Below, in pieces: positions 46,143-49,328 of a DNA stretch of 64,000 nt (positions are counted from its first letter, which is position 1; each line of letters starts with the position of its first letter). The notes below the pieces were generated by a model. It was not told where the DNA came from and made no database searches. It worked only from the letters and a program-made list of their open reading frames with translations. A program made the position numbers and the translations under genes. The stretch lies in contig JAGPYM010000043.1 in NCBI GenBank assembly GCA_020736575.1, forward strand, positions 188,120 through 252,119, read 5' to 3'. This DNA comes from Thelonectria olida. Its lineage: Eukaryota; Ascomycota; Sordariomycetes; Hypocreales; Nectriaceae.

Positions 46143-47661
46143 TTAGGTGGCGACCTCTACAGCCTTCTTTGCAGCTTCACCAAACCCAGCTTCAACATAG
46201 AGACCGAGATTGGCCTGTTCCAGCTACAGCAATAGTCAATATCGAGCTTGAGACGACTTATAGTGCACTCACCATTGCCAGACCCTCCTCTGAGTTTGTA
46301 CCTTGCAAACGGACAACCACTGGGACAACGAGAGGCCCCAACTCGCTTGCGGCAGCGATGATGGATTCGGCAATCATATCGCATCTTGTAAGCCCTGCAA
46401 CGGTTAGACGAGAGTTCCAGCTTGCATGTAAAAGGCTATCTCACCGCCGTAGATATTAACCAATATGGCAGTGACTCTCTCATCCCGCAGAATAATGTCA
46501 AAAGCCCTCAGCATCGTATCCGTCGTCGCCTTGCCACCAGCATCGAGGAAATTAGCACTCTTCCCTCCGTAATGGCTGATGGCATCGTTGGTAGCCATTG
46601 CGAGGCCTGCCCCGTTAACAACGTTACCAATATTGCCATCCATCCTCACATAGACAAGGCCGTGCTGCTCTGCCTCCACCTCCTCGCTGACTTCCTGCTC
46701 AAAGTCTCTCAACGCGAAAATGTCCGGCTGACGGCTTTGCGCCGCGTCGTCGAAAGTGAAGCGGGAATTCATGCACATCAGCTGTCCGTCGGCTGAGCGA
46801 CGAACGAGGTCGTCGATGTCGAGGCTCGTTGCTTCTTCGTTAACAAATATCTGGTACAGGCCTTGAAGTACCTGTTTCAGATTCGTGGCTTCGGCATCGG
46901 GGAGGGACATGCGGTCGGCGATCCGCTTCGTGAGAGCTGGAGTGATTCCCTCGGTGAAGCCGAACGGAAAGCTGTACGGAAGTATACAATGCTCCATGGT
47001 CTGAGATCTCACGATAGAACCGTCTTCAATTAAGATTATTGTCGGGCAGTAGTTCTCCCTGTCGATAGTCATGCAGAGCTTCCAGTTCCTATCATACGGA
47101 ATTGATTCAAGGACGTCGACGTGCTTGATCATGTGCTCCCTCTCACCAGGATAACCTGGCAGGAGTTCGTAACCAAGCATCCTCGCGGCAATGGTAGCTC
47201 CGTCCTCTGGGTTCTTAGCGAAGTCAATTTCAGCGGGAATGCCCGAGCTGAGTTGTCTACGACCGTGGATAGTTTGAATGAACTGTGGTTTGATGAAGCA
47301 TGGCCCACCTGCAAGATCATGGTCGTGAGCGAATGTTTTTGTGATTCCAAATACAATCCTTCATACCTAGCCATCTCATGGCCTCTCGAACTTCATCGAC
47401 GGACCGCGCTGTTATGTCTCGAGGCACCGGGATCCCAACCTGGACTGTGATTAGTGACAGTAGCATCAATGCAATGGTGTACCGCCATCCAAACCTCTTT
47501 GAGCAAAGCCTGGGATTGGAATGTGTGCAAATGCAGGCTTCTTCTGCTAGTTGGGGAGGTCTGTATAGCATAGTTAGCAGTGGATGTGAGTAGCCGATTT
47601 GGAATGCACGTACTTTGCTTCGCTTCCACAGTCGCAGGATGGTCCCTGGCCGACTTGTCAT
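46143..47661 (-). CDS. Divergent succinyl-CoA ligase beta-subunit-like protein
   Basis: This 417-aa protein comes from six exons: 47661-47614, 47560-47495, 47439-47367, 47308-46445, 46394-46273 and 46223-46143, all in frame. The N-terminus is basic and mitochondrial-like (MTSRPGTILRLWKRSK), followed by HTFQSQALLKEVGIPVP, as in the ATP-grasp domain of SucC. The C-terminal ligase domain is well kept: YVRMDGNIGNVVNGAGLAMAT, GGKSANFLDAGGKAT and ILVNIYGGLTRCDMIAE. Two key parts are not: the Gly/Lys-rich loop normally written GGRGKG reads QTIHGRRQLSSG, and the EINPL metal/substrate motif reads DIDDL. The real respiratory subunit is expected elsewhere in the genome. This copy may have changed its substrate or lost catalysis. 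Its partner alpha gene lies 437 bp upstream on the same strand. Confidence 0.85.
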
Positions 47662-48098
47662 GGTGGCAAATGATGGAGGGGATAAATGACAAGGAAATGA
47701 GACCAGGTACAAGAAGTATAAAGGAGCACAGAATAGTTTCGTCTATGCAGTAAAATAACCTCAGCGAATGTGCAACATGCTGCGGGCAGACGGGAAGGTA
47801 AACGCCGAGGGGCAGAGGCGGGGTTGATCGGCACGATGCGTCCCGTCTACCGAAGCCTATCACGAGGCCGACTCAGCTGAGGTCATAAAGTCATGACTTC
47901 CAAACGGGACATCTTCTTTGAAGTGTACCGGCAAATGAAATTAGAATGTTTGTCCCAGTGAATGAAAGATCTATTGTCAAACGAGTCAAATTCTGTATTG
48001 GTCCTGCTCCAAGTTCAACCCAGCCGCTGTCCTCTTCGCCCCCGTTGGCATATAGCCTACCTAGGTATGAAGTAGCCGAGCATCAGACTGCGAAATAT
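47662..48098. promoter_or_regulatory. Spacer between ligase alpha and beta genes
   Basis: This 437-bp stretch contains the alpha 3' end and presumably the beta promoter. No other gene fits. The spacing allows separate transcripts. Confidence 0.4.
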
Positions 48099-49328
48099 CT
48101 AAACCCCTAAAAGTGCCCTCATTGTGCTGCCCATGACACCCGGATGCGGTACAACAACTGCTCCAGCATCTTCGAGAGCTTGTGCCTTGAATGCGGCAGA
48201 GGCATCCCTCGACGATAAAACAGCACCCGCATGGCCCATTGTCCTTCCCTCTGGAGCTGTTCTTCCAGCCACCATTGCGATGATGGGCTTTGGATCAGCT
48301 GACTTTCGATACTCTCTGATGAGCTCTGCTGCCTCTAGTTCAGCCTCACCCCCTATTTCCCCAATAACAATAATTCCCTTGGTTTCTTCGTGCGTGAAGA
48401 AGAGTTTCAGCCCATCGGCCAAAGTTGTACCTGTCCCACAGTCAACACCAACTCATTCTCACTCAGTCACAATTTTTCTCATACCAGGCAACGGATCCCC
48501 TCCCATGCCGACTACGATGCTCTGGCCGAGCCCTGCTGCTGTCGTCGAGCCCACCGCCTCGTAGCTCAAGGTACCAGACTTGGATACAATGCCAACGCAG
48601 CCTCTAGAATACTGCCGATAGGGCATGAAGCCAACCCGGCACTGCTCGGGGGCGATGATTCCTGGACAGTTTGGCCCGACCAGTCGAGTTTTGGATTGGC
48701 TTCTCAGCACCTCTTGCACGCGCAGCATGTCATTCAAAGGGATGTGCTCAGCCACGGACACGACGAGTGGGACCTCGGCCTCGATGGACTCGATGATGGC
48801 TTGCGCTGCGGATTGGGCGGGGACGAAGAGGCAGCTCGCATGTGGTTTGACCGTATCCATAGCCTTTAAGAAATCTCAGTGGTGAGATATGAATCATGAT
48901 GCTAAGATGTGTAATGGTGTGCTTACCTCTCGTACTGTGTTGAAGACGGGGAAGCCAAGATGCGAGTGGCCACCCTTGCCGGGCGACACACCTCCGACAA
49001 TGTTTGTACCATACTCAATGGTCTCTTTTGCGTTTATCGATGCCTGTATGAGTGTGGGCAACAGATAGATCTCAGTTGGGAGTGCGAGATCAAACATACA
49101 GCTTTCCCTAGGCCTAAGTGGTTTGGTTAGCGATTGCCGGTTAATGACCATGTCATGGTCGTCTTGGTAGAAGCCTCATAGGTACACACCCTGGTAAATA
49201 ACACGAGTGGATTTCGAAATATTCAAATTCGATATGGTTTGCTCATAAGACGCCCAAGACCGAGATGATGCGGAGAAGCTGCGGACGGCCTGTGACAGCC
49301 TGGCGAGATGTCGGCCTCTTGGTGACAT
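48099..49328 (-). CDS. Succinyl-CoA ligase alpha-subunit-like protein
   Basis: This 326-aa protein comes from five exons: 49328-49190, 49113-49100 (a 14-nt microexon), 49043-48927, 48863-48485 and 48430-48099. It starts with an Arg/Ser-rich mitochondrial-type leader (MSPRGRHLARLSQAVRSFSASSRSW), then YEQTISNLNISKSTRVIYQG. The CoA-binding loop normally read GFTGxQAT is GLGKAAS here, one residue shorter. NAKETIEYGTNIVGGVSPGKGG, VGPNCPGII, GIVSKSGTLSYE and GMGGDPLPGTT are all present. So is the phospho-His loop APEGRTMGHAGAV. Catalysis through the phospho-enzyme therefore looks possible. The family makes succinate, CoA and ATP or GTP reversibly in the matrix. Being beside a divergent beta gene suggests a dedicated second enzyme with another acyl substrate. 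Confidence 0.88.

What the first reader, a model, noticed from the sequence alone, without database searches (positions are those of the whole stretch)
46143..49328. Physically linked succinyl-CoA ligase alpha and beta genes in a fungus
Succinyl-CoA ligase subunits are normally encoded at separate nuclear loci in fungi. Here alpha-like and beta-like genes lie head to tail 437 bp apart, each with introns and a mitochondrial-type leader. Both are diverged. This looks like a dedicated second ligase, possibly for another dicarboxylate (for example an itaconate- or methylsuccinate-like acid) or for a pathway encoded nearby. It is my best candidate for an undescribed system.
Basis: partly seen in the sequence, partly recalled or inferred. 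Interest (0 to 1): 0.75.

Follow-up and report, generated by a model that had tools for sequence, protein, structure and literature searches.

The report
Second, altered succinyl-CoA ligase pair
This fungus carries, side by side, the two subunit genes of a second succinyl-CoA-ligase-like enzyme found in many moulds; its CoA-handling half is strictly preserved while key residues of its ATP-binding half have been lost in this and other species, so it probably does a different job from the Krebs-cycle enzyme.

Summary
Two intact intron-bearing genes lie head to tail on the minus strand, 437 bp apart: alpha 49328-48099 (326 aa) and beta 47661-46143 (417 aa). The genome, a match to Thelonectria olida, also has unlinked canonical alpha and beta genes, so this is a second pair. 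It is not unique: the listed relatives (45-81 percent identical for beta, 64-86 for alpha) form a clade apart from the canonical genes (SH-aLRT 100), and alpha and beta lie on contigs of equal length in 32 of 44 labelled genomes. A decayed, tail-to-tail second pair exists in the same genome.

Five site residues are all kept in 33 of 120 clade members; each is 80 of 80 in bacterial SucC. Alpha's phosphohistidine and beta's N264 stay at 120 of 120. One glutamate of the nucleotide site, E197, is kept in 116 of 120, so some phosphoryl step may persist there.

The substrate is unknown. In some Hypocreales a MaoC-type gene, related to a solved itaconyl-CoA hydratase, is the neighbour; this mildly favours a branched dicarboxylate. 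New variant of a known kind.

The parts
48099..49328 (-). Alpha-like subunit gene, 5 exons (49328-49190, 49113-49100, 49043-48927, 48863-48485, 48430-48099), 326 aa; phosphohistidine equivalent H283, E208 equivalent E241, and T280 where canonical enzymes have Arg
   Evidence: Gene model; identical database protein P0121; residues
46143..47661 (-). Beta-like subunit gene, 6 exons, 417 aa
   Evidence: Gene model; P0001 identical through residue 391; AlphaFold model of P0001 (395 aa), mean pLDDT 81.8, matches SCS beta chains
46683..47560 (-). ATP-grasp half of beta (to residue 271): K69 kept, glycine-rich loop lost, E197/N199/D213 equivalents are D226 (46820-46818), D228 (46814-46812), N243 (46769-46767)
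   Evidence: the dividing point between the halves is my choice (start of the EVEAEQHGL stretch)
46143..46682 (-). CoA-ligase half of beta (from residue 272): N294 kept, loop NIYGGLTRCD with T353 where canonical has V or M
47662..48098 (.). 437-bp intergenic stretch between alpha stop and beta start
49100..49113 (-). 14-base microexon of alpha in the CoA-binding loop (LGKA)

Best explanation
The two genes encode the alpha and beta subunits of a second, probably mitochondrial, succinyl-CoA-ligase-type heterodimer, a Pezizomycotina clade distinct from the Krebs-cycle enzyme. The pair most likely joins CoA to, or takes it from, a dicarboxylic acid other than succinate through the phosphohistidine of alpha. 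Shown: intact genes, separate clade, recurrent linkage, conserved phosphohistidine and CoA-ligase half, changed residues in the substrate and phosphohistidine loops, eroded nucleotide site. Inferred: that the products form one enzyme, the compartment, that the acid is not succinate (a branched C5 acid such as itaconate or mesaconate is my first guess), and that in eroded lineages such as this one nucleotide is bound differently or not needed.
For: Second copies beside canonical genes in the same genome. Clade separate from the canonical T. olida protein with bacterial outgroup, SH-aLRT 100, in beta (106 rows) and alpha (74 rows). In 32 of 44 labelled genomes alpha and beta lie on contigs of equal length, 12 of the 32 under 1 Mb; consecutive locus tags in three genomes, and 10 of 120 listed beta rows carry alpha domains too, that is fused gene models. 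Alpha: H246 and E208 equivalents 120 of 120, while the Arg before the phosphohistidine motif (72 of 72 bacteria) is kept in 0 of 120. Beta: N264 120 of 120; loop residue V328 (V or M in 75 of 80 bacteria, T in 2) is T or I in 117 of 120. Mean pairwise identity in the clade: ATP-grasp half 42 percent, ligase half 78 percent; bacterial control 54 and 69. Site residues are lost in Trichoderma, Cordycipitaceae, Clonostachys chloroleuca/rosea, the F. solani group, most Colletotrichum and this fungus, while ligase halves stay 88-96 percent identical within those named groups.
Against: No activity, expression or complex data. E197 of beta, which serves the histidine at the nucleotide side (PMC10342173, passages), is kept in 116 of 120; the window has Asp there, a mild change, and its N199D/D213N pair could still hold a metal. 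33 of 120 members keep all five residues and 47 of 120 keep K46, E197, N199 and D213, so the ancestral activity was probably NTP-linked. The ATP-grasp half also diverges faster in groups with an intact site (F. oxysporum type 74 against 90 percent; Dothideomycete/Leotiomycete set 59 against 78), so fast divergence by itself is not a sign of erosion. The substrate guess rests on a neighbour that may be there by old synteny. Linkage was not shown in 12 of 44 labelled genomes.
Confidence: 0.6

Rival explanations
1. An ordinary succinyl-CoA ligase isozyme (for example for another nucleotide or another growth condition), with sequence drift but the canonical reaction.
For: Same fold; catalytic His and Glu of alpha in 120 of 120 and E197 of beta in 116 of 120; an intact-type member passes NCBIfam's SucC cut-offs (P0005, 449.7 against 370) and an alpha passes both alpha cut-offs (P0135).
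Against: Window beta scores 310.9 against the 370 cut-off while the canonical one scores 485; K46, G53, N199 and D213 are often lost and substrate-loop and phosphohistidine-loop residues differ even in intact-type members.
Confidence: 0.2
2. The beta gene of this lineage is decaying and the pair is on its way to becoming a pseudogene.
For: Eroded nucleotide site; a second pair in the same genome has already decayed at the edge of an AT-rich, RIP-like tract.
Against: All exons open with GT-AG introns; window and Mariannaea betas are 92 percent identical in the ligase half and 58 percent in the ATP-grasp half, alphas 83 percent; eroded betas are retained across whole genera and a family.
Confidence: 0.08
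3. Beta works as a regulatory or scaffolding pseudo-ligase, or alpha 2 pairs with the canonical beta.
For: Nucleotide-site residues lost although the domain is predicted to fold.
Against: The residues kept in beta are those of the active site shared with alpha (N264, GG loop), and alpha keeps its catalytic residues in 120 of 120.
Confidence: 0.12

Closest known systems
Mitochondrial succinyl-CoA ligase (SUCLG1 with SUCLA2/SUCLG2; E. coli SucCD; canonical T. olida genes)
   Same: Subunits, domain order, fold, phosphohistidine and alpha glutamate, CoA-ligase domain
   Different: Separate clade, genes linked, Arg before the phosphohistidine lost, substrate loop V/M to T, nucleotide site eroded in many members including this one
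Itaconate breakdown in Aspergillus (IctA CoA-transferase, IchA hydratase, CclA lyase; PMC6320622, passages read)
   Same: Possible substrate class; a relative of itaconyl-CoA hydratase sits beside beta in some Hypocreales
   Different: There activation is by a CoA-transferase, and in A. niger the genes are not clustered; here it would be an SCS-type pair, and no hydratase or lyase gene was found near it
AllFGH oxamic transcarbamylase (former FdrA, PF00549; PMC11326118, abstract start and passages read)
   Same: Precedent: a protein annotated under the CoA-ligase Pfam family turned out to work on carbamoyl phosphate, not to make an acyl-CoA
   Different: Distant sequence (FdrA model 18.2 bits on alpha against a cut-off of 433), other subunits, other reaction
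Malate-CoA ligase, citryl-CoA synthetase, ATP-citrate lyase
   Same: Same superfamily, other acids
   Different: Window beta scores 230 against the malate-CoA ligase cut-off of 604; citryl-CoA synthetase matches at E 1e-11 against 7e-67 for SCS

Membership tests
Succinyl-CoA ligase | Alpha with CoA-binding and ligase domains; beta with ATP-grasp and CoA-ligase domains, SCS fold | tested here: met
Succinyl-CoA ligase | Alpha phosphohistidine (H246) and E208 | tested here: met
   H283 and E241 in the window; 120 of 120 clade members
Succinyl-CoA ligase | Intact nucleotide site of beta (K46, G53, E197, N199, D213; E197 from PMC10342173, the other numbers recalled) | tested here: not met
   Window: K kept, glycine loop degenerate (a G aligns at G53), then D, D, N; bacterial control 80 of 80 at each of the five. 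A further position, E107, varies in the control too (47 of 80) and was not used
Succinyl-CoA ligase | Curated NCBIfam cut-offs | tested here: inconclusive
   Window beta fails both (310.9 of 370; 279.8 of 375.55), alpha passes one narrowly (337.6 of 336) and fails one (337 of 353.2); the canonical copies pass all four
Succinyl-CoA ligase | Placement among canonical mitochondrial orthologues | tested here: not met
   Outside, SH-aLRT 100; quick trees with only one canonical fungal sequence per subunit
Succinyl-CoA ligase | Succinate, CoA and NTP activity | not testable with these tools
   Needs an enzyme assay
Succinyl-CoA ligase | Mitochondrial location | tested here: inconclusive
   Basic, acid-poor leaders; no predictor run
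Malate-CoA ligase | NCBIfam NF010647 cut-off | tested here: not met
   230 of 604 bits
Fungal itaconate degradation gene set | Hydratase and citramalyl-CoA lyase genes beside the activating enzyme | tested here: not met
   None among the 26 window frames scanned; MaoC homologues lie on C89 and, weaker, C155, HpcH/HpaI matches on C78, C46, C142, C88 and C134. Clustering is not a feature of the A. niger pathway either, so this excludes a nearby gene set, not the pathway

The most novel reading that the evidence does not exclude
In eroded lineages the pair no longer uses nucleotide. Succinyl-CoA plus phosphate charges the alpha histidine, and the phosphohistidine then activates a second dicarboxylate, which takes up CoA: a CoA-transferase running through a phosphohistidine in a succinyl-CoA-ligase body, evolved several times as the ATP-grasp half decayed.
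Probability: 0.12. Interest if true: 0.8.

Novelty: new variant of a known kind. Interest (0 to 1): 0.5.

Why it matters
More than a hundred listed proteins from mould genomes, among them Fusarium, Colletotrichum, Trichoderma, Beauveria and Metarhizium, belong to this clade, many under the name of a Krebs-cycle enzyme. If the name is wrong, metabolic models of these fungi contain a false duplicate and miss a real acyl-CoA step. The repeated loss of nucleotide-site residues beside a fixed catalytic core gives a natural series for asking whether a succinyl-CoA-ligase scaffold can work without ATP or GTP.

Tried and rejected
Viral contigs: 1 of 15 candidate stretches encodes a relative, 47 percent over part of alpha; not pursued. 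FAS1_DH (PF13452) and HpcH/HpaI searches of the own genome gave no match on C104 or C152. PMC4542470 was opened because it mentions succinyl-CoA and Fusarium; it concerns N-acetyltransferases (passages). PMC2440562 gave nothing on the site residues I wanted (passages). Ten literature searches showed no functional study of this clade in their listings; most subscription papers are not in that library. A structure job for alpha and the pdb_via comparison were not run.

Counting limits: searches list only the best 120 hits each, and candidates were capped in 13 and 15. For the linkage counts I transcribed by hand 109 of 120 beta rows, 73 of 120 alpha rows and 20 of 120 MaoC rows, leaving out unnamed rows and many further rows of the same species or genus; the MaoC rows were picked because the genome also appeared in the alpha or beta list. 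The 44 labels include one unnamed pair on a 2,766-base contig. The beta tree has 105 of the 109 transcribed rows (rows under 340 aligned residues left out). The 8 changes are for K46, E197, N199 and D213 together; the site columns were not removed before the tree was built. The count of 52 included the canonical row; one search gives 51 of 120 for E197, N199 and D213. One search read some rows from gapped alignment files; six alpha positions were recounted from clean files, and the five that one search also counted gave the same numbers (the TEGIP position was counted only). The canonical T. olida beta used lacks its first exon.

Full report
What is there. The window is the last 64,000 bases of a 252,119-base contig of a 52.5-Mb fungal genome. 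The alpha-like protein is identical to a deposited Thelonectria olida protein on a contig of the same length; T. olida is in Nectriaceae, Hypocreales. Two intact genes lie on the minus strand, alpha first, then beta after 437 bp. They have five and six exons, all introns GT-AG, 49-76 bp.

Not the only copies. Searches of the own genome found canonical alpha on C2, canonical beta on C24, what is probably ATP-citrate lyase on C144 (my reading of the domain hits), the window pair, and a further site on C152. In unspliced translated alignments the window alpha is 44 percent identical to the canonical alpha and the window beta 33 percent to the canonical beta. C152 holds a decayed second pair: alpha on the minus strand with in-frame stops, 60 percent identical to the window alpha over its longest stretch, and a beta remnant on the plus strand in sequence of 10-19 percent G+C with TpA/ApT of 1.4-1.6, as repeat-induced point mutation leaves. 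That pair is tail to tail, so linkage recurs in a different arrangement.

A clade of many fungi. The named rows among the best 120 hits of beta and of alpha are Pezizomycotina, mostly Sordariomycetes (classes recalled). With bacterial outgroups the betas form one clade of 106 rows and the alphas one of 74 rows (relic included), each apart from the canonical T. olida protein with SH-aLRT 100 (quick trees, one canonical fungal sequence each). The bacterial betas found are 32-39 percent identical, so a recent bacterial origin is not indicated. In 32 of 44 labelled genomes alpha and beta lie on contigs of equal length, 12 of the 32 under 1 Mb; in 12 of 44 they do not. Locus tags are consecutive in Clonostachys (V2G26_000389/000390), Ophiocordyceps (XA68_10981/10980) and Fusarium musae (J7337_009061/009062), 6, 8 and 12 apart in Sporothrix, F. 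anthophilum and Purpureocillium, and far apart in F. sarcochroum (FSARC_8926/12705). Ten of 120 beta rows are alpha-beta fused gene models from the Fusarium solani group and relatives (P0014 read).

The eroded site. I aligned 119 other betas with the window beta and compared residues with 80 bacterial SucC. Numbers follow E. coli; H246, E208 and E197 are given in PMC10342173 (passages), the others are recalled. In bacteria K46, G53, E197, N199 and D213 are each 80 of 80. In the clade they are 84, 41, 116, 63 and 101 of 120; all five together 33 of 120; K46, E197, N199 and D213 together 47 of 120. Some losses are alignment gaps from truncated models. N264 in the ligase half is 120 of 120. The window has K69, a degenerate glycine loop, D226, D228 and N243. 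Mean pairwise identity within the clade is 42 percent in the ATP-grasp half and 78 percent in the ligase half; the bacterial control is 54 and 69. Groups with an intact site also diverge faster in the ATP-grasp half (74 against 90, 59 against 78), so this contrast marks the whole clade and not erosion alone. On the beta tree the earliest rows keep K46, E197, N199 and D213 and at least 8 changes of that state are needed. Eroded groups keep ligase halves 88-96 percent identical within the group. An AlphaFold model of beta (P0001, mean pLDDT 81.8) still folds as SCS beta; the best PDB match is the pig GTP-specific enzyme, E 7e-34.

Alpha. H246 and E208 equivalents are 120 of 120. The Arg before the phosphohistidine motif in 72 of 72 bacterial alphas is T, V, A, I, M or S in all 120; the G of the TEGIP motif is H in 118 of 120 (H in 9 of 72 bacteria); the P of GGDP (70 of 72 bacteria) is M or L in 101 of 120 and kept in 4, the window among them. 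So the alphas listed, including those paired with intact betas, have an altered phosphohistidine loop.

The relic. The C152 alpha relic falls in an 11-row set with Clonostachys byssicola, Fusarium decemcellulare, F. oxysporum-type and Ilyonectria destructans alphas (SH-aLRT 97), though it is a long branch and the tool calls such placements unsure. Betas from that group keep K46, E197, N199 and D213, some with a lost glycine loop. The relic's own ATP-grasp part is not recoverable. If the placement holds, T. olida lost a pair of the less eroded type and kept the eroded one, which speaks against the window pair being debris.

What it may do. In the superfamily ATP phosphorylates a histidine in the ATP-grasp half's reach, which then swings to the CoA site (PMC11494057, passages). 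The clade keeps the CoA-site part. Retention of E197 in 116 of 120 speaks for continued use of the nucleotide-side position in some form. The ligase-half loop differs from canonical fungal and nearly all sampled bacterial enzymes, so another acid is likely. Hints on the acid: MaoC-type proteins are fused to beta in five checked Trichoderma gene models (P0096, P0097, P0100, P0103, P0120), adjacent by locus tag in Aphanocladium and Lecanicillium (PWT90_03190/03191, NLG97_g1414/g1413), and a profile of the family finds two PDB sequences, 8huc and 8khg, the latter named itaconyl-CoA hydratase. [quoted passage not shown] Against: NCBIfam has no model for these MaoC proteins, their tree largely follows the species, they share a contig length with alpha or beta in 8 of 20 picked genomes, in T. 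olida they are on C89 and C155, and in C. navitas and Ilyonectria robusta the fused neighbour is a short-chain dehydrogenase instead. MaoC proteins of this type may also be the mitochondrial fatty-acid enzyme HTD2 (some database names say HTD2-like).

Neighbourhood in the window. Pfam hits in 26 chosen open frames: SET, MFS transporters, fungal transcription factor, alpha/beta hydrolase, MULE transposase, GNAT acetyltransferase, GMC oxidoreductase, beta-lactamase-type, fructosamine kinase, deaminase, NACHT-WD40, DUF7703 and ankyrin; the rest had none. This is not a full annotation. None suggests a pathway for the pair.

Verdict. Observation right, interpretation partly right. A new variant of a known kind, of interest because of the repeated loss of nucleotide-site residues; the substrate and the nucleotide question need an enzyme assay.

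Noticed in passing
L014 3788-6093 (G000:C152:3788-6093): Decayed tail-to-tail second alpha/beta pair at the edge of an AT-rich, RIP-like tract; its alpha groups with the sublineage whose betas are less eroded.
   Followed up: yes
window 53143-53775 (-): Open frame matching PF18785 (AID/APOBEC-like deaminase) at 1e-56, in a fungus.
   Followed up: no
window 54162-58916 (+): 1,585-residue open frame with NPHP3-type, winged-helix and WD40 domains, an NLR-like (STAND) architecture.
   Followed up: no
window 18539-21199 (-): 887-residue open frame with a MULE transposase domain.
   Followed up: no
window 49682-51100 (-): Beta-lactamase-type (PF00144) open frame upstream of alpha on the same strand; no link to the pair established.
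   Followed up: no
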